This document shows, piece by piece, positions 187 through 6,923 of a stretch of 64,000 nucleotides of DNA (position 1 is the stretch's first letter; each line of letters starts with the position of its first letter). A program made the position numbers and the translations under genes. Source of the stretch: Cellulophaga sp. BC115SP (GTDB lineage: Bacteria; Bacteroidota; Bacteroidia; Cytophagales; Spirosomataceae). Location: positions 1 to 64,000 of the forward strand of contig NZ_JAAALB010000007.1 in NCBI RefSeq assembly GCF_009905545.1, written 5' to 3'. The notes under the pieces are model-generated. The model was not told where the DNA came from and did no database searches. It saw nothing but the letters and a program-made list of their open reading frames with translations.

Positions 187-1191
187 TTAATAATAATTTA
201 AAGCACGGCTTAGTCTACCTTGAATGACCTTTCTTAGCTTTAGAGGAGCTAAAACTTCAACTCCATCACCGAAACCTAAAATTTCTTTTTCTAACTCAAA
301 ATTGATTTGTAAAGCTAATTCAATGGTGAGTCCTCTCTCATTTTCCTCAATAACCTTTTGTGAGTGATGTAAAGGTTTGGTAATTACATAAGGAGCATGC
401 AAAGGAGTAAACTTTAATACTATTTGTTGTGGACGAAGATTATTTACAGTCACTCCAATGGTATTTTTATAGTATTCTTCTTGAACAATGGTATCATTTG
501 GTAGATAAGTAATGTCTTCGGAGATGTGAAGGCTTTGGATTCTATCTAGTGCAAGATGTAAAATACTTTCATTTGCTCTTCTTTTACCTACCAGAAACCA
601 ACGGTTTTTAAATTCTTTTAACCACCATCCGTGAAATATAAAAACACCCTCCTGTCGTGCTTTGAATGACTTGTAAGTTATAACAAGAGCTTTTTTAGCT
701 AAAATTGCATGATAAAGATCGTCTAAATACGAAAGTCCCTTCAGGTTCTCATTTTTTTCAAAATCAATAATTGAACTTCGTTTTTCTTGAGCACTATAAA
801 CATGTTCTTCCAGCTTATTGACCACTTCACTCAATTGTTCAAAATGAGAAAAACCTTTGAATTGCTTCAATAACGACAGCGCTTCATTCATTTGAATAAG
901 GTCTGTTTGTGTAATAGGTGATTTTGTGATACTAAAGTTAGGATCAGCATAGGTATAAAACTTTTTATCAACAACGATGATTGGGGCTTCATAACCTAAT
1001 TTATCACTACGCATAACTTGAATATCTGCTTGAATGGTACGCAAGCTGATTCCTTTATCAATTCCTTCGTATTCATAGAGCGCATCTGATACTTTTTCTA
1101 TTAAATCTTCCAAGGTCCATTTCCGCTGACGATTTTGTAAACAAGCATCGATTGTTTTGTAACGGATAAGGGCATTTCTATTAGTAGGCAT
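187..1191 (-). CDS. WYL-domain transcriptional regulator
   Basis: A 334-residue protein. The N-terminal part (about residues 1-75, with ISLRTIQADIQVMR) resembles the winged helix of DeoR/YafY-type regulators. The middle carries a WYL domain, with FHGWWLKEFKNRWFLVGKRR as the region equivalent to the WYL signature, and a WCX-like C-terminal extension follows. WYL domains are known ligand sensors in regulators of DNA-damage, RNA-repair and CRISPR genes. The start was set at the ATG giving MPTNRNALIRYKTID, because the 32 upstream residues are low-complexity and lie in the divergent promoter region. The gene diverges from the TROVE gene with 129 bp between starts, so control of the Ro/RtcB locus is a reasonable inference. 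No RtcR-type sigma-54 activator is present. Confidence 0.85.
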   Translation of the reverse strand: MPTNRNALIRYKTIDACLQNRQRKWTLEDLIEKVSDALYEYEGIDKGISLRTIQADIQVMRSDKLGYEAPIIVVDKKFYTYADPNFSITKSPITQTDLIQMNEALSLLKQFKGFSHFEQLSEVVNKLEEHVYSAQEKRSSIIDFEKNENLKGLSYLDDLYHAILAKKALVITYKSFKARQEGVFIFHGWWLKEFKNRWFLVGKRRANESILHLALDRIQSLHISEDITYLPNDTIVQEEYYKNTIGVTVNNLRPQQIVLKFTPLHAPYVITKPLHHSQKVIEENERGLTIELALQINFELEKEILGFGDGVEVLAPLKLRKVIQGRLSRALNYY

Positions 1192-1255
1192 ACTAGATTC
1201 GATCTGTTTATAGATTTTTGAGATATTTTTTACAAAAAAGTAAAAATAAATTGAA

Positions 1256-1276
1256 CTACGCAAAAAGACTGCGTAG
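1256..1276. promoter_or_regulatory. Inverted repeat between the WYL and TROVE genes, possible operator
   Basis: CTACGC and GCGTAG form a perfect 6-bp inverted repeat with a 9-bp spacer, 45 bp upstream of the TROVE start and 65 bp upstream of the WYL start. It is the clearest dyad in the divergent intergenic region. Operator function is an inference from position only. Confidence 0.35.
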
Positions 1277-1320
1277 ACACCATGCAATTTTGTATTAGAA
1301 ATTTAAAACAACCTAATGTC

Positions 1321-2841
1321 ATGAAATTCAATTTCTTAAAGAAGACTAATACTATTCTCAAAAATTATGAAGGAGTACCTTCGTATCAATTGAGTCCAGA
1401 AATGGAATTATATAGTGCTACGGTTTCGAGCCTGCTTCATGACAGTTTCTACGAAAAAGCTGAAGACCGATTAATACGCCTACAACAATTGATTGAAAAA
1501 GTATCGCCAGAATATTGCGCTAAATTAGCCGTATATGCGCGTCGTTCGATGAACTTGCGCTCTGTGCCAATTGTGCTTTCGGTAGAGTTAGCGAAAAAAG
1601 CTGAGGCAGGAGCATGGGTCGGAAAAGCTATTGAGCAAGTAGTTATGCGACCAGATGAGATCACAGAAATATTAGCCTATTATCAGCAAACTAATCAAAG
1701 AACAGGTACAAAGCGATTGAATAGACTTTCGAAGCAAATTCAAAAAGGTTTAGCAAAGGCTTTTAATCAATTTGATGAATATCAGTTTGCAAAGTATAAT
1801 CAAAATACGGAGGTAAAGTTAAGAGATGCCTTGTTCTTGGTTCATCCGAAACCTAAGGATTTAGCACAACAAGCAGTTTTTGATAAAATCACCCAAGATA
1901 CTTTATCAACACCATATACATGGGAAACTGAACTTTCTGCGCTTGGACAGCTTCATTTTGAAAGTAAAAATGCAAAAAATAAAGCCTTCAAAAACAAGTG
2001 GGAAGAGCTAATTCTGAGCAAGAAAGTAGGCTATATGGCTTTGCTAAGAAATCTGAGAAATATGCTGGAAAGTAATATTTCAGATGAGTGTTTAGAGATT
2101 GTTTTAACGTATTTAGCTGATGAAAGCGCCATCAAGAGTGCTAAGCAATTGCCATTTAGATATTGGTCTGCTTATCGAGAATTGAGTAATTTAACTGATG
2201 GTCGGGTTTCTGGCGTTTTTGATACGTTAGAAAAAGCAATGCTGGTAAGTGCTCAAAATATGAAGGGGTTTGGTGCTGATACTAAAGTTGTTTTGGCCTG
2301 TGATGTCTCTGGTTCGATGCAGCAAAAGTTATCTGCCAAAAGCAGCCTTATGTATTTCGATATAGGTTTGTTATTAGCTATGATTTTACAAAGTCGTTGC
2401 AAAAATGTAATTACAGGAATGTTTGGAGATACTTGGAAGGTTATACCTGTACCCAACAAAAATATATTATCAAATGTGGAAGCATTTCATAGACGTGAAG
2501 GCGAAGTAGGATATTCGACGAATGCACACTTGGTAATTGAGGATTTGCTAAAACGTGAGTATCAAGCTGACAAAGTCATGATTTTTACAGATACACAGTT
2601 ATGGAATAGCCAAAATAGGAATATAAATAGCATTCAAACGACTTGGCAAAAGTATAAGAGTAAATATCCCAAAGCAAAATTATATCTCTTTGATTTGGCG
2701 GGTTATGGTCAAAGTCCCTTGAGAGTAGAATCAGGAGATGTGTATTTGTTGGCGGGCTGGTCGGATAAAGTTTTTGAAGTACTCGATGCCTTAGAAAATG
2801 GACAGAGTATTGTGGACTTTATTCAATCAATAGAATTATAA
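1321..2841 (+). CDS. Ro60-like TROVE/vWA-domain RNA-binding protein (Rsr type)
   Basis: A 506-residue protein. The N-terminal two thirds match a TROVE module: helical HEAT-like repeats with LAVYARRSMNLRSVPIVLSVEL and LRDALFLVHPKPKD. The C-terminal third is a vWA domain with the MIDAS motif DVSGSM at residues 328-333 and a later FTDTQLW. Ro proteins form a ring that binds Y RNAs on its outer surface and misfolded or fragmented RNA in the central hole; bacterial homologues (Rsr) act with exoribonucleases in RNA quality control. The start at 1321 (MKFNFLKK) was preferred over an in-frame ATG at 1282 lying in the divergent promoter. Downstream lie three Y-RNA-like structures and rtcB on the same strand, the neighbourhood known for Rsr loci. 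Confidence 0.9.
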   Translation: MKFNFLKKTNTILKNYEGVPSYQLSPEMELYSATVSSLLHDSFYEKAEDRLIRLQQLIEKVSPEYCAKLAVYARRSMNLRSVPIVLSVELAKKAEAGAWVGKAIEQVVMRPDEITEILAYYQQTNQRTGTKRLNRLSKQIQKGLAKAFNQFDEYQFAKYNQNTEVKLRDALFLVHPKPKDLAQQAVFDKITQDTLSTPYTWETELSALGQLHFESKNAKNKAFKNKWEELILSKKVGYMALLRNLRNMLESNISDECLEIVLTYLADESAIKSAKQLPFRYWSAYRELSNLTDGRVSGVFDTLEKAMLVSAQNMKGFGADTKVVLACDVSGSMQQKLSAKSSLMYFDIGLLLAMILQSRCKNVITGMFGDTWKVIPVPNKNILSNVEAFHRREGEVGYSTNAHLVIEDLLKREYQADKVMIFTDTQLWNSQNRNINSIQTTWQKYKSKYPKAKLYLFDLAGYGQSPLRVESGDVYLLAGWSDKVFEVLDALENGQSIVDFIQSIEL

Positions 2842-2889
2842 ATACTGATGTGTTAAGTTCAAAACATCAGGCTATCATATTGAAGATTT

Positions 2890-3025
2890 TGTAAAATGCC
2901 GTAAGGTTGAGATACTTCGCAGCCAATATAGGGGAGGAATGGCGTGATTGAGTAATACAATGAGGTCATCTGGTTCGACTCCAGCAATGCAATGCCCCGT
3001 TCTCGACCTGTCTATTGCTTTTACA
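2890..3025 (+). ncRNA. Y-RNA-like element A (tRNA T-arm bearing)
   Basis: This lies between the TROVE gene and rtcB. GGTTGAGA (2905-2912) pairs with TCTCGACC (3001-3008) in an 8-bp closing helix with one G-U. Inside is a tRNA T-arm-like hairpin, CTGG-TTCGACT-CCAG (2970-2984). The start of the element carries the core TGCCGTAA...GATACTTCG, which recurs in the two following elements. No convincing D-arm was found here. The ends are approximate; no terminator is visible after this element, so it may be processed from a longer transcript. Identification as a Y RNA rests on the motif, the fold and the neighbours. Confidence 0.55.
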
Positions 3026-3035
3026 AAAAACTACC

Positions 3036-3097
3036 AGAGTGCCGTAAAAGAGCGATACTTCGAATGTAATCGACTCCTTTTATCATCGCTTTTTGCT
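3036..3097 (+). ncRNA. Y-RNA-like element B (short, YrlB-like)
   Basis: The core GTGCCGTAAAAGAGCGAT is followed by ACTTCG. AAAGAGCGAT (3047-3056) pairs with ATCGCTTTTT (3085-3094) over 10 bp with one G-U, enclosing about 28 nt that contain ACTTCGAATGTAATCGACTC. The element is about 60 nt and lacks tRNA-like arms, resembling the short second Y RNA described beside YrlA in enterobacterial rsr operons. The closing 3' strand ends in five T residues, so it may terminate or be processed there. Ends are approximate. Confidence 0.5.
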
Positions 3098-3124
3098 CAT
3101 TGCCTTTGGTTTATTAAGATATTG

Positions 3125-3236
3125 AAGAGTGTCGTAAAAAAGCGCTACTTCGGCTAATTGTGTCGTAGGTTCGACTCCTACCTGTCTTGTACAGTAGCTC
3201 AGTGGTAGAGCAAATTATTAATGTCGCTTTTTGTCT
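3125..3236 (+). ncRNA. YrlA-like Y RNA with circularly permuted tRNA mimic
   Basis: The outer stem pairs AAAAAGCG (3137-3144) with CGCTTTTT (3225-3232). Next comes a second helix TAATT/AATTA (3155-3159 with 3213-3217). Inside is a perfect T-arm, GTAGG-TTCGACT-CCTAC (3165-3181), then an acceptor-like stem CTGT/ACAG closed by a loop (3182-3194), then TA and a perfect D-arm, GCTC-AGTGGTA-GAGC (3197-3211). This T-arm, closed acceptor, D-arm order is a circular permutation of tRNA with the Y stem replacing the anticodon arm. That is the architecture reported for Salmonella YrlA. It shares the GTCGTAAAAAAGCGCTACTTCG core with elements A and B. Ends are approximate. Confidence 0.75.
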
Positions 3237-3303
3237 GTTACCTCTTCAATCCCTTTTAAAATAGTTCTACATCTTTTAAAACAATTGCACAAATTCTAAA
3301 AAA

Positions 3304-4833
3304 ATGGAAACAGAAATCATTACCCAAGAAGATTTACAACAATTGGGTGTACATCATGAAGAAGCCTATCCAAAATTTTTAAGGGTAGCCAATGGTTTGT
3401 TAAGTAATGGTGTTTATCCCAAGTCACATATATTGTTGTTGTTTGCTCAAATGATAGATTCGCCAAAGAAGTTTAGTTTTTCCAAAAACAAACTCACCAA
3501 TTTGGCACTTTACACCAAGCATTTGAAAGAATTAGGTCAGGAACTTGTTTTATCAGAGTATGGACAATCTTTGTTGGAGGCAGAGAAAAACAAACCTAAA
3601 TATGAATTACCTAAGACTGGTCGTCAGGCAGAAAACTACTTTGACTTAAGAGAAGAAGCATTATCCTACCGAATTTACGGAGGAAATTACATTGAGCAAG
3701 GCGCCTTGGACCAAATGCAAACAGCCATGAGGTTGCCTATTTCATTAGCAGGGGCATTGATGCCCGATGCACATCAAGGATATGGATTGCCTATTGGTGG
3801 GGTTTTAGCCACTAAAGCAGATACTGTTATACCGTATGCTGTTGGGGTCGATATTGCCTGCCGTATGTGTATGAGCGTATTTGATTTACCTGTGTCGATG
3901 ATTCAACGAGAAGATAAATTGTTGAAAAAAATGCTTGAATACCATAGTTTCTTTGGGATGGGATCAGAGTCGAAGCAGAAATATGATGATACACTTTTTG
4001 ACCGCTCGGAATGGACTGCGACAAAATTGATTCGAGACTTAAAAGATAAAGCATATCGACAATTAGGAACTTCAGGAACGGGAAATCATTTTGTTGAATG
4101 GGGGGTATTGGAAGTCTTAGCACAGGATGAGCTGATGGATTTACCCGTAGGAAAATACCTTACTTTGTTATCACATTCGGGCTCAAGAGGCTTTGGGGGG
4201 GCTATTGCCAATCATTATTCAAAGATAGCTATGGAAAAAACTAGGCTTCCTAAAGAAGCTAAACATTTGGCTTGGCTAGATATGAATAGTGATGAAGGGC
4301 AAGAATATTGGTTATCCATGAATTTAGCAGGTGATTATGCCTCAGCCAATCATCATGAGATTCACAATAAAATTGCTGCTGCTCTCAATCAAAACCCACT
4401 GAAGCGAATCGAGAACCACCATAATTTTGCATGGGAAGAACGCCTTGCTGATGGAACCCCTGTGATTGTGCATCGAAAAGGAGCTACGCCTGCTGGTAGC
4501 CTAGATTTAGGGATTATTCCTGCCTCGATGACTCAGCCCGGCTATGTGATTCGTGGTAAAGGGATACCAGACGGATTAAATTCTGCTTCGCATGGTGCAG
4601 GTCGTAAAATGTCAAGAACCAAAGCACTTGGTATGTTGACAAAGGATGATTTGCAATCAGAATTAAAAAAAGCACAAGTGCAACTCATTGGTGCCGATTT
4701 GGATGAAGCTCCTCAAGCATATAAGGATATTCGGAAGGTCATGGATGCCCAAACGGATTTAGTACATGTAATAGCGCAGTTTAGTCCAAAAATCGTTCGA
4801 ATGGCCGACGGTCGTGAAAAGGCAGAAGACTAA
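3304..4833 (+). CDS. rtcB: RNA-splicing ligase RtcB
   Basis: A 509-residue GTP- and Mn-dependent ligase that joins 2',3'-cyclic phosphate (or 3'-phosphate) ends to 5'-OH ends. Family motifs are all present: MPDAHQGYGLPIGG, GVDIACRM (metal ligands D183 and C186), GTGNHFVEWG, HSGSRGFG, HRKGATPA and SHGAGRKMSR, where His430 is the expected guanylylation residue. The protein looks full length and intact. It lies downstream of the TROVE gene and the Y-RNA-like elements on the same strand. No RtcA cyclase is in the window. The neighbourhood supports a role in repair of cleaved RNAs, with the Ro-Y RNA particle as likely partner. A hairpin terminator follows. Confidence 0.96.
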   Translation: METEIITQEDLQQLGVHHEEAYPKFLRVANGLLSNGVYPKSHILLLFAQMIDSPKKFSFSKNKLTNLALYTKHLKELGQELVLSEYGQSLLEAEKNKPKYELPKTGRQAENYFDLREEALSYRIYGGNYIEQGALDQMQTAMRLPISLAGALMPDAHQGYGLPIGGVLATKADTVIPYAVGVDIACRMCMSVFDLPVSMIQREDKLLKKMLEYHSFFGMGSESKQKYDDTLFDRSEWTATKLIRDLKDKAYRQLGTSGTGNHFVEWGVLEVLAQDELMDLPVGKYLTLLSHSGSRGFGGAIANHYSKIAMEKTRLPKEAKHLAWLDMNSDEGQEYWLSMNLAGDYASANHHEIHNKIAAALNQNPLKRIENHHNFAWEERLADGTPVIVHRKGATPAGSLDLGIIPASMTQPGYVIRGKGIPDGLNSASHGAGRKMSRTKALGMLTKDDLQSELKKAQVQLIGADLDEAPQAYKDIRKVMDAQTDLVHVIAQFSPKIVRMADGREKAED

Positions 4834-4896: not shown

Positions 4897-4934
4897 TTTT
4901 AAATTTTATTTTTGATCCAAAATTTAAAAATAAC
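4892..4934 (+). promoter_or_regulatory. 16-bp perfect inverted repeat at the endonuclease start
   Basis: GTTATTTTTAAATTTT (4892-4907) and AAAATTTAAAAATAAC (4919-4934) are exact reverse complements with an 11-bp spacer. A TATTTTTG sequence matching the -7 consensus TAnnTTTG lies at 4907-4914 in the centre. The right arm ends 4 bp before the ATG at 4939. It could be an operator for the HTH-containing methyltransferase or an mRNA hairpin masking the start codon. Both are inferences. Confidence 0.5.
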
Positions 4935-4938
4935 ATCT

Positions 4939-5706
4939 ATGGCAAATACCTATTTATCATTTATTAGCGACGAGCACTTATTGAATTGTGTTGCTAATCT
5001 TTATAAATCCTATCAAAAGGCAAAAAATGATATTAATAAAAAGAAATTCTATAGTAATAAAATTGATGCTTTTAAAATGGTTTTTGATGTAAAATTCAAT
5101 AATATGGATGAGGAAGCATTGATTCAGGCTGAGATTTTACGTCAAATAGATAAATCAATCAATAATTCAATCGGAACTTTTCATGAAGAAATACTTGGAG
5201 GAATAGCTGGTTACGAAAAAGGAAATTTGAGTGGATTTGATATTAAGGCTATTGACAACACGTTATTTGCTGATATTAAAAATAAGCATAATACGATGAA
5301 TAGTAGTGCTGCTGAAAGTCTATTTCAGAAGTTAAAACGATATGCAGATGATCATAAACAAGCAAAGTGCTATTGGGTACAAATATTAGCTACACAAAGT
5401 TTTTGCGAAAAATGGACTAGTATTATTAATGGTAAAGAATATAGCCATAGTAGAGTCTATAAAATATCGGGAGACCAATTTTATAAACTACTTACTGGAG
5501 TTGATAATGCACTATTTCAATTATATAGTGTCTTACCAAAAGTGATAGAGGATTATCTGAAAAGTATTAGTGCTGGAGAGTCTGAGAAAAAGCAAAACTC
5601 TGCACTAATCGAAATTAAGGATGGGTCTCAAAAATCTGGTAGAACCATCCTTAATGAAATTACGTATGAAAACTACCAGTATTATCTGGGTTTTGATAAA
5701 CTGTAA
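4939..5706 (+). CDS. Type II restriction endonuclease, Eco47II-like family
   Basis: A 255-residue protein resembling the Eco47II/Sau96I-type endonuclease family, whose members cut GGNCC-like sites. The likely PD-(D/E)XK core is GFDIKAIDNTLFADIKNKHNTMN (about residues 95-117), where D and the ADIKNK segment would supply the metal ligands and catalytic lysine. The start was set at the ATG giving MANTYLSFIS; a TTG at 4912 lies within the inverted repeat. The gene converges on the methyltransferase gene with a 25-bp overlap of coding ends, a typical compact restriction-modification layout. It is AT-rich compared with flanking rtcB and rarA. The exact recognition site cannot be read from sequence. 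Confidence 0.8.
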   Translation: MANTYLSFISDEHLLNCVANLYKSYQKAKNDINKKKFYSNKIDAFKMVFDVKFNNMDEEALIQAEILRQIDKSINNSIGTFHEEILGGIAGYEKGNLSGFDIKAIDNTLFADIKNKHNTMNSSAAESLFQKLKRYADDHKQAKCYWVQILATQSFCEKWTSIINGKEYSHSRVYKISGDQFYKLLTGVDNALFQLYSVLPKVIEDYLKSISAGESEKKQNSALIEIKDGSQKSGRTILNEITYENYQYYLGFDKL

Positions 5707-6923
5707 TACTGATTTAAAAATTTTACAATTGAATAACCTACCTCTCTGCCAAGATTAACAGGTACTGCATTACCAATTTGTTTATATTGTTGAGAGGTAG
5801 AACCAGCAAACTTCCAGTCATCTGGGAATGTTTGAATTCTTGCATATTCACGTACGGTGAATGGTCGAGTTTCTTCTGGATGACAACGTTCCGTTTGCTT
5901 TTGTGCAGGAGAACAAGTTAGTGTAAGACTAGGTTCGTCCCATCCAATTCTACGAGCCATTCCAGTTTTACCACCCCCTAAATAAAAGCTTTTACCCATA
6001 TAACTTTTCTGAACATCCAAAGGTAAATCACGCCAGTATCCTTTGGGAGGCACTAGATCTAATACAATTTTCTTTGATTTGGGATATTTGGCTCCATCAG
6101 ACTCAGGTACGTCAGTGTCAAAAAGCTCACCCTTTTTTAAAGCATCAGCAAGGTTATATATCTTTTTATAAGGTTTAGGATACTCAAATGGAATATCTAT
6201 ATCTTTTCTGATTCCAACTAAGATAAGTCGTTCACGTTTTTGAGGTACCTTATAATTAACAGCTTTTAATACTTGAATAGGTACTACATTATAGCCAATT
6301 TCATTCAAAATTGAAATCATGCCTTGAAGTGTTTTTCCATTCTCATGACTTAGTAAACCACGCACATTTTCACCGACACAAATCAATGGGTTGATTTCTT
6401 GCACAGCTCTGGCAAATTCGTAAAATAACGTACCCCTAGCATCATCTAGCCCAAGCTTCTTTCCTGCATAACTGAAAGCTTGACAAGGAAATCCTCCAGT
6501 TACCAGGTCGACTTGATTATGGTATTCTGAGAAATTAAAGCTTTTTATATCTCCTTCTAATACATTCCAGTGTGGTCTGTTACGTCTTAGTGTTTCACAA
6601 GCCCATTTATCAATTTCATTCAAAGCTGTACACTCTATACCAGCCTGTTCGAGACCAATGGCTAACCCTCCTGCACCCGCAAAAAGCTCTACTACTGAAT
6701 AAGGATATAATGGTTTTTCATAGTTTGAAATTTCTTTATCCTCTTTTGATTTGATAAAATCATTAAAAATATTTAATTGCTCTCGAGAATACACACGATA
6801 GTTACTCATTGGTTCGCGTACGGCTTGAAGTTTACCTTCTCTATCCCATCTTCTCAAAGTTTCTTTACTTTTGCCTATTATTTCAGCCGCCTCATTTAGT
6901 GTTAAAAAATCATCCATAACCAC
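5682..6923 (-). CDS. DNA cytosine-C5 methyltransferase with N-terminal HTH domain
   Basis: A 413-residue protein. Residues 1-60 form a MerR-like helix-turn-helix (LTLNEAAEIIGKSKETLRRWDREGKL, then YRVYSREQL). The rest is a complete m5C methyltransferase: motif I VELFAGAGGLAIGLEQAG, motif IV GGFPCQAFSYAGKK with the catalytic Cys, motif VI GENVRGLL, motif VIII PQKRERLILVGIR, a target-recognition region, and motif X QIGNAVPVNLGREVG. It should protect the site cut by the neighbouring endonuclease. The fused HTH suggests that the enzyme also regulates transcription of the system, as known for other HTH-bearing methyltransferases. An alternative Met two codons downstream is equally plausible as start. 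Confidence 0.93.
   Translation of the reverse strand: MVMDDFLTLNEAAEIIGKSKETLRRWDREGKLQAVREPMSNYRVYSREQLNIFNDFIKSKEDKEISNYEKPLYPYSVVELFAGAGGLAIGLEQAGIECTALNEIDKWACETLRRNRPHWNVLEGDIKSFNFSEYHNQVDLVTGGFPCQAFSYAGKKLGLDDARGTLFYEFARAVQEINPLICVGENVRGLLSHENGKTLQGMISILNEIGYNVVPIQVLKAVNYKVPQKRERLILVGIRKDIDIPFEYPKPYKKIYNLADALKKGELFDTDVPESDGAKYPKSKKIVLDLVPPKGYWRDLPLDVQKSYMGKSFYLGGGKTGMARRIGWDEPSLTLTCSPAQKQTERCHPEETRPFTVREYARIQTFPDDWKFAGSTSQQYKQIGNAVPVNLGREVGYSIVKFLNQYYSLSKPR

What the first reader, a model, noticed from the sequence alone, without database searches (positions are those of the whole stretch)
187..4833. Complete Ro60-like / Y RNA / RtcB RNA-repair locus with a WYL regulator in a Bacteroidota genome
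Seen: a TROVE/vWA protein, three related structured noncoding elements and an intact RtcB on one strand, with a WYL-domain regulator divergent from them. Known: in Salmonella and others Rsr, YrlA/YrlB and RtcBA form an operon controlled by the CARF-type activator RtcR. Inferred: the WYL protein replaces RtcR as the damage or ligand sensor, and the Ro-Y RNA particle feeds broken RNA to RtcB. The WYL variant, the lack of RtcA and three RNAs in tandem make this locus unlike the enterobacterial one.
Basis: partly seen in the sequence, partly recalled or inferred. Interest (0 to 1): 0.9.

Follow-up and report, generated by a model that had tools for sequence, protein, structure and literature searches.

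The report
Bacteroidota RNA-repair switch with Y RNAs
A bacterial gene cluster pairs an RNA-joining enzyme with a Ro60-like protein and three small RNAs, two of which imitate tRNA, and relatives of the regulator beside it sit next to many different RNA-repair genes, suggesting a shared switch for RNA repair.

Summary
Observation confirmed. In a Flectobacillus genome, a WYL-WCX regulator (187-1191, -), TROVE/Ro60 (1321-2841, +), three Y RNAs (2887-3028, 3033-3110, 3121-3250) and RtcB (3304-4833) are real. Each Y RNA has the same bulged two-part stem; E3 carries a permuted tRNA-like module (YrlA order), E1 an acceptor-tethered one, E2 is minimal. Covariation is strong. RtcA was not found in the genome.

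New here: palindrome CTACGCA-N7-TGCGTAG (1256-1276), the only copy with at most 1 mismatch in 7.08 Mb. It recurs upstream of TROVE in 76 of 81 loci, 12-13 nt before a TTTG box, and upstream of some RtcB genes. In evenly drawn genomes it is present in 18 of 22 with the WYL ortholog and 0 of 5 without. Orthologs of this WYL protein sit near RtcB, RlaP, RNA ligase/PNKP or Hen1 in other genomes; none of 20 paralog regions does. The WYL model fits DriD and PafBC, ssDNA-gated activators. Best reading: a DriD-like activator of an RNA-repair regulon. Binding, ligand and sign of control are inferred.

Known already: Ro-Y RNA-RtcB operons, YrlA tRNA mimicry, WYL sensors as an idea. New variant; nine related loci carry a Y RNA with 23S rRNA sequence.

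The parts
187..1191 (-). HTH-WYL-WCX transcription regulator (334 aa from the conserved start MPTNRNALIRY)
1256..1276 (.). Palindromic putative operator CTACGCA-AAAAGAC-TGCGTAG
1289..1292 (+). TTTG of the putative -7 promoter box for TROVE, 12 nt after the palindrome
   Evidence: Bacteroidota -7 consensus recalled
1321..2841 (+). TROVE/Ro60-like protein with C-terminal vWA domain (506 aa; DVSGS motif)
2887..3028 (+). Y RNA E1: Ro-type stem plus an acceptor-tethered tRNA-like module (GGGG/CCCC, hairpin, T arm)
3033..3110 (+). Y RNA E2: minimal form, Ro-type stem with a 23-nt effector loop
3121..3250 (+). Y RNA E3: YrlA-like, T arm, acceptor-like helix and D arm in permuted order
3304..4833 (+). 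RtcB-family RNA ligase, divergent subfamily, active-site motifs present

Best explanation
The locus is an inducible RNA-repair unit. The divergent HTH-WYL-WCX protein is an activator of the DriD/PafBC kind. It binds the palindrome at 1256-1276, which takes the place of the -33 element a fixed 12-13 nt upstream of the TTTG box, and recruits RNA polymerase to transcribe TROVE, the three Y RNAs and RtcB. The signal is most likely RNA fragments or RNA ends that appear when nucleases cut cellular RNA, bound by the WYL/WCX groove in the way DriD and PafBC bind ssDNA. The TROVE protein holds Y RNAs by their shared bulged stem; E1 and E3 present tRNA-like modules hung from opposite ends of the tRNA fold, as tethers, gates or decoys. 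RtcB reseals cleaved RNA with 3'-phosphate or cyclic-phosphate ends without RtcA. Shown by sequence: the parts, the RNA structures, the palindrome, its fixed spacing to TROVE and RtcB promoter boxes, and its co-occurrence with the WYL ortholog group. Inferred: WYL binding to the palindrome, activation rather than repression, the ligand, co-transcription, and the division of labour between TROVE and RtcB.
For: Palindrome with at most 2 mismatches within 250 bp upstream of TROVE in 73 of 81 loci, at most 3 in 76 of 81, against 31 and 42 of 1620 random windows of the same loci. TTTG starts 12-13 nt after it in 76 of 76 TROVE-side sites within 130 bp of the start and in 6 of 6 sites found near 21 RtcB genes; in the WYL-facing direction 0 of 25 sites have it at 12-13, 4 at 11, 2 at 10. 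In evenly drawn genomes the palindrome is present in 18 of 22 with a WYL ortholog and in 0 of 5 without. 16 of 16 genomes tested with TROVE but no adjacent WYL carry a WYL homolog elsewhere, 15 of them at 316 bits or more. A core RNA-repair gene lies within 8 kb in 23 of 40 WYL-ortholog regions and 0 of 20 paralog regions. WYL orthologs separate from paralogs (SH-aLRT 96) and the TROVE label needs 12 changes on the tree, at least 9 forced by well-supported branches. Fold matches: DriD E 1.9e-13, PafBC 1.1e-11, ahead of BrxR/CapW at about 6e-7. Y RNA covariation: 27 of 32 pairs (E3 class) and 24 of 34 (E1 class). RtcB motifs present. RtcA and RtcR not found in own genome.
Against: No expression, binding or ligand data. 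The WYL model has pTM 0.49 and TM-scores near 0.46, so nearness to activators over repressors is modest. Four genomes with a WYL ortholog lack a convincing palindrome at TROVE (L007, L009, L025, and L027, which has one arm only). 14 of 40 ortholog regions show neither a listed repair gene nor SPFH, and 15 of 40 no palindrome with at most 2 mismatches, so the regulator may control other genes too. Five of 81 TROVE loci (L047, L089, L096, L108, L109) lack a site with at most 3 mismatches. RtcB lies within about 8 kb of TROVE in only 21 of 81 loci, so the Ro-Y particle need not work with RtcB.
Confidence: 0.6

Rival explanations
1. The WYL protein is a repressor of the BrxR/CapW kind. It occludes the promoter at 1256-1276 and is released by a damage-derived ligand.
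For: The site lies over the core promoter region, where repressors also sit. BrxR and CapW are significant fold matches. BrxR is a repressor (PMC9122601, passages).
Against: The fixed 12-13 nt spacing in 82 of 82 TROVE- and RtcB-side sites and better fold matches to DriD and PafBC resemble activator promoters as described for DriD (PMC12340889, passages). A missing -33 box was judged by eye only.
Confidence: 0.3
2. It is only the Bacteroidota edition of the known rsr-yrl-rtcB operon. The WYL gene is an unrelated neighbour, and the palindrome belongs to another regulator or is a hairpin in the transcript.
For: Ro, Y RNAs and RtcB together are known (PMC7790460, passages). In the window the two arms could pair.
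Against: The palindrome tracks the WYL ortholog, including where WYL is elsewhere in the genome, and sits at fixed spacing upstream of a promoter box. Its arms do not keep pairing: all 7 positions could pair in only 20 of 76 sites, and positions 3 and 19 are A and C in 30 of 76.
Confidence: 0.08
3. The Y RNAs are mainly decoys: tRNA look-alikes, and rRNA look-alikes in relatives, that titrate nuclease toxins, while RtcB repairs what escapes. (Concerns the Y RNAs only; compatible with the main explanation of the regulator.)
For: Several different mimic modules per locus, including 23S rRNA sequence in nine loci. A decoy role for YrlA has been suggested (PMC7790460, passages).
Against: The E3 class has no anticodon loop, the usual cut site. 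Data for Rsr and Y RNA in Deinococcus point to tethering of PNPase (PMC8394870, passages).
Confidence: 0.3

Closest known systems
rsr-yrlBA-rtcBA operon of Salmonella with RtcR
   Same: TROVE protein, tRNA-mimicking Y RNAs and RtcB together, regulator gene divergent
   Different: WYL-WCX regulator instead of the sigma-54 CARF activator RtcR, no RtcA found, divergent RtcB subfamily, three Y RNAs of different classes, own palindrome
YrlA RNA (Rfam RF02553)
   Same: Permuted T arm, acceptor-like helix, D arm on a long basal stem; 45.7 bits for E3
   Different: Below the Rfam gathering score of 69; E1 and E2 are of other classes
Deinococcus radiodurans Y RNA (RF01053)
   Same: E1 has a similar layout: G-rich closing helix, T arm in unpermuted position
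   Different: Only 19.8 bits, E 0.53, not significant; relationship not shown
DriD (Caulobacter) and PafBC (mycobacteria)
   Same: HTH-WYL-WCX layout; palindromic site over the -35 region at fixed distance from the -10 box (DriD)
   Different: They answer to DNA damage and ssDNA; this group sits with RNA-repair genes in Bacteroidota; ligand unknown
Bacterial Hen1, RlaP, T4 Rnl1-like ligase/PNKP and SPFH-RtcB neighbourhoods
   Same: RNA-repair genes found near orthologs of the same WYL regulator
   Different: Not in the window; alternative partners in other genomes

Membership tests
Ro60/TROVE protein | TROVE domain plus vWA domain | tested here: met
   PF05731 91.1 bits, vWA_Ro60 30.0 bits; solved TROVE protein 98 bits over query residues 11-501; not an NCBIfam Rsr equivalog (29.3 bits, cut-off 900)
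Ro60/TROVE protein | binds Y RNA | not testable with these tools
   needs a binding assay
Bacterial Y RNA | basal stem pairing 5' and 3' ends with conserved bulged core | tested here: met
   covariation not used in selection, GYCG with TTRC: C-G 131, U-A 98, U-G 17, C-A 9 of the 255 elements (of 297) with a readable TTRC
YrlA | permuted tRNA-like T/acceptor/D module | tested here: met
   E3: (acceptor-like helix: 7 of 7 pairs with compensatory change)
YrlA | reaches Rfam gathering score | tested here: not met
   45.7 bits against 69 in the window; no YrlA hit at gathering score in 8 related loci
RtcB ligase | fold and active-site Cys and His motifs | tested here: met
   aligned DIAC, NHF, HSGSRG, HHN, HRKGAT with 4dwr (roles recalled)
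RtcR-controlled rtc operon | RtcR regulator and RtcA | tested here: not met
   neither found in own genome
DriD/PafBC-type WYL activator | HTH-WYL-WCX layout | tested here: met
   WYL and WCX above Pfam cut-offs; model matches; the HTH rests on the model and alignment, no Pfam HTH hit
DriD/PafBC-type WYL activator | site at fixed distance from the -10/-7 box | tested here: met
   76 of 76 TROVE-side and 6 of 6 RtcB-side sites
DriD/PafBC-type WYL activator | activates transcription | not testable with these tools
   needs expression data
DriD/PafBC-type WYL activator | activated by ssDNA | not testable with these tools
   ligand unknown

The most novel reading that the evidence does not exclude
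Bacteroidota have a dedicated RNA-damage response, an RNA counterpart of the DriD/PafBC DNA-damage response. One WYL-WCX activator senses RNA breakage and switches on interchangeable repair modules (RtcB, RlaP, RNA ligase/PNKP, Hen1, Ro60) through one operator. Its Ro60 arm carries expandable arrays of Y RNAs whose effector modules copy the RNAs under attack: different tRNA faces and, in nine related loci, 23S rRNA helix 69-71.
Probability: 0.35. Interest if true: 0.92.

Novelty: new variant of a known kind. Interest (0 to 1): 0.74.

Why it matters
What switches on RNA repair in bacteria without RtcR, and what Ro-Y RNA particles do, are open questions. A defined candidate operator, one regulator group and a small locus make both testable in culturable Flectobacillus, Flavobacterium or Pedobacter strains. 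The Y RNA arrays suggest that Ro60's RNA partners are a modular set of mimics, which would widen the present picture of Y RNAs as tRNA mimics.

Tried and rejected
NCBIfam gave no name for the WYL protein and only below-cut-off names for TROVE and RtcB. phmmer against PDB found nothing for the WYL protein at E 0.001. Rfam gathering scores found no Y RNA in the window or in 8 related loci. A chance palindrome was rejected (none in 100 shuffles; own genome). In one search the 2-mismatch sites (7) were no more than the reversed-pattern control (12), so I claim no wider regulon in this genome. A hairpin reading of the palindrome was rejected. The 23S-like Y RNA of L045 gave no Rfam match at E 1, although BLAST against a 23S gene is exact over 32 nt. 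In one search the TROVE start was not found for 13 loci (L006, L007, L009-L012, L022-L028); these, with L005, L008 and L029 again, were done by match coordinates. L013 was dropped (TROVE fragment), and L029 was kept out of the with/without count because its neighbouring WYL is short (206 bits); it has palindromes with 1 and 2 mismatches. Single-sequence folding did not show the tRNA-like module of E3; the alignment-based fold did. Seven near-identical WYL rows and paralogs L239-L249 were left out of the tree. Papers wanted but not held: Burroughs and Aravind 2016, Chen 2014, Sim 2020, so I cannot exclude that they already describe WYL-RtcB or WYL-Ro neighbourhoods.

Full report
What is there. 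The window begins with a 334-aa WYL-WCX protein on the minus strand (187-1191), a 129-bp divergent gap, a 506-aa TROVE protein (1321-2841), a 462-bp gap, and a 509-aa RtcB (3304-4833). Conserved N termini in relatives set the starts. The genome is a Flectobacillus by kinship: the TROVE protein is 95% identical to that of F. longus. RtcA was not found in 59 relatives, own genome included (E. coli control positive); RtcR was not found in the own genome, with three marginal hits in the 59. RtcB keeps the motifs aligned with the Cys and His active-site residues of solved RtcB proteins (residue roles recalled), but scores below every NCBIfam cut-off listed, so I call it a divergent subfamily. The TROVE protein keeps DVSGS in its vWA domain and aligns over residues 11-501 with a solved TROVE protein.

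The Y RNAs. Three elements share GYCGTAA-inner stem-TACTTCG-effector-inner stem-TTRC-terminal stem. E3 is YrlA-like (45.7 bits, E 4.3e-9; gathering 69) and E1 resembles the Deinococcus layout only weakly (19.8 bits). A descriptor applied to the 3.5 kb downstream of TROVE in 81 loci (the best 80 of 578 relatives, plus the window) finds 318 elements in 79 loci, against 11 in reversed sequence, 3 on the other strand and 8 upstream of TROVE; 297 remain after removing overlaps, 1-9 per locus in those 79. The descriptor demands pairing in the two stems, so that pairing is not independent evidence. The pairing of GYCG with TTRC was not demanded; in the 255 of 297 elements where TTRC can be read it gives C-G 131, U-A 98, U-G 17, C-A 9 (Fisher p 4e-41, not corrected for relatedness). 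On a 21-sequence alignment of the E3 class 27 of 32 pairs show compensatory change and 95.5% of cells pair, against 43-49% when slid; the acceptor-like helix, which the descriptor did not use, has compensatory change in 7 of 7 pairs. On 19 sequences of the E1 class 24 of 34 pairs do so, 94.9% of cells pair, against 39-54% when slid. E1 is hung from its GGGG/CCCC closing helix with hairpin then T arm; E3 has T arm before D arm, which by recalled YrlA structure means hung from the anticodon side. In four Flectobacillus genomes variable columns are 10 of 139, 8 of 77 and 13 of 131 in E1, E2, E3, and 22 of 119 in the spacers once 25 trailing columns are left out. Effector modules of the 297 by motif: T arm only 132, T then D 88, neither 75, D only 1, D then T 1; 66 of 79 loci have a T-then-D module.

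The palindrome. CTACGCA-N7-TGCGTAG at 1256-1276 is unique in the window (at most 1 mismatch) and the only copy with at most one mismatch in 7.08 Mb. Upstream of TROVE in the 81 loci it is present with at most 2 mismatches in 73 and at most 3 in 76; random windows of the same loci give 31 and 42 of 1620. The five without are L047, L089, L096, L108, L109. 38 of the 81 records are titled Chryseobacterium and one Limnohabitans, so the loci are not independent; the site is also in Flavobacterium, Pedobacter, Spirosoma, Niastella, Arcicella and several MAGs. In genomes drawn by kinship it is present in 18 of 22 TROVE loci whose genome has a WYL ortholog (300 bits or more; four of the 22 are Flectobacillus), missing in L007, L009, L025 and one-armed in L027, and absent in 5 of 5 whose genome has none (L011, L022, L024, L026, L028), of which 4 still have Y RNA motifs. 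Of the 48 loci of 81 without a WYL gene in reach, 16 genomes were searched: all have a WYL homolog elsewhere, 15 at 316-381 bits; the sixteenth, 185 bits, belongs to L096, whose TROVE has no palindrome. A TTTG box starts 12-13 nt after the palindrome in 76 of 76 TROVE-side sites and in 6 of 6 sites near 21 RtcB genes; read towards the WYL gene, 0 of 25 sites have it at 12-13, 4 have it at 11 and 2 at 10. The -7 consensus TAnnTTTG of Bacteroidota is recalled; here TTTG is constant and the TA is found in 2 of 76. The arms do not keep base pairing (7 of 7 positions in 20 of 76 sites), which speaks against an RNA hairpin.

The regulon. WYL scores fall into two groups, 308 bits or more and 269 or less. 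Of 40 regions around WYL orthologs, 33 showed no RtcB or TROVE within 1.5 kb and seven (L220, L224-L229) showed RtcB. A core RNA-repair gene (RtcB, TROVE, RlaP, RNA ligase, PNKP or Hen1) lies within 8 kb in 23 of the 40, that is in 16 of the 33; including SPFH in 26 of 40; in 20 regions around lower-scoring WYL paralogs in 0. The palindrome with at most 2 mismatches occurs in 25 of 40 and 1 of 20. Names by Pfam on single representatives: RlaP, T4 Rnl1-like ligase, PNKP, Hen1_L, SPFH/Band 7. In a tree of 75 WYL proteins 66 orthologs separate from 9 paralogs (SH-aLRT 96), and the TROVE label needs 12 changes, at least 9 by starred branches. A species of the same genus, G004, has no TROVE match but has WYL, RtcB and the perfect palindrome.

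Mechanism. The AlphaFold model (pLDDT 81, pTM 0.49) matches DriD and PafBC best, then BrxR and CapW. In DriD promoters a 20-bp pseudo-palindrome overlaps a poor -35 element at constant distance from the -10 box (PMC12340889, passages); PafBC works by sigma adaptation and is switched on by ssDNA in its WYL domains (PMC11804915, passages). The geometry here is of that kind, so I favour an activator. K192, R197 and R217 are invariant in the 29 aligned proteins, fitting a ligand with phosphates. That WYL domains might sense cyclic-phosphate RNA and regulate RNA repair is already in print as a proposal (PMC9503650, passages; WYL as nucleic-acid ligand sensors: PMC4012209, passages). In the listings and passages I saw, no paper names this palindrome, this regulator group or Y RNA arrays of Bacteroidota; the key 2014, 2016 and 2020 papers were not held.

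Side finding. In nine related loci (L033, L034, L045, L057, L058, L060, L064, L067, L089) one Y RNA carries a module, 165-172 nt in the six measured, that begins with 23S rRNA sequence: 32 of 32 nt in L045, 31 of 32 in L034 and 26 of 26 in L089 against the 23S gene of C. indologenes; weaker or shorter in L067, L064 and L060. Its fold has 66 predicted pairs, 16 with compensatory change. The helix numbers 69-71 are recalled. This is not in the window, but it bears on what Y RNA modules are for.

Limits. All functional steps are inferred from sequence. The 81 loci were chosen by TROVE similarity from a capped list. Gene calls in scripts were crude, and HMMs for repair genes were built here from 2 to 81 sequences.

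Noticed in passing
L045:11600-11836 and eight other loci: Y RNAs whose effector module starts with a near-exact copy of 23S rRNA sequence (helix 69-71 region, numbering recalled); the nine aligned have 84% mean column identity
   Followed up: partly
L034:11800, L045:10908, L060:10856, L067:11246, and one in L088: Y RNA modules that look by eye like permuted class II (Ser/Leu-type) tRNA
   Followed up: no
L046:11250 and 10 other loci (cluster 3): A conserved Y RNA module with GUGCAAUUUCC..AGUAAGGA..UGCAUGUC whose model RNA I did not recognise
   Followed up: no
L203:7699-9417; similar lengths in L145, L166, L204-L206: Orthologs of the WYL regulator of about 570-595 aa; the one scanned (L203) has a C-terminal PhyH-like 2-oxoglutarate dioxygenase domain
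   Followed up: partly
window 4912-6923: Eco47II-type restriction enzyme and a convergent C5 methylase with N-terminal MerR/HTH_17 domain directly behind RtcB; homologs of both follow RtcB in L031 but not in L032
   Followed up: partly
L064: Contig titled Limnohabitans MAG whose WYL protein groups with Flavobacterium in the tree; probably mis-binned
   Followed up: no
L103:9534-10010: Between TROVE and RtcB lies what looks by eye like a nearly complete, unpermuted tRNA inside the Y RNA region
   Followed up: no
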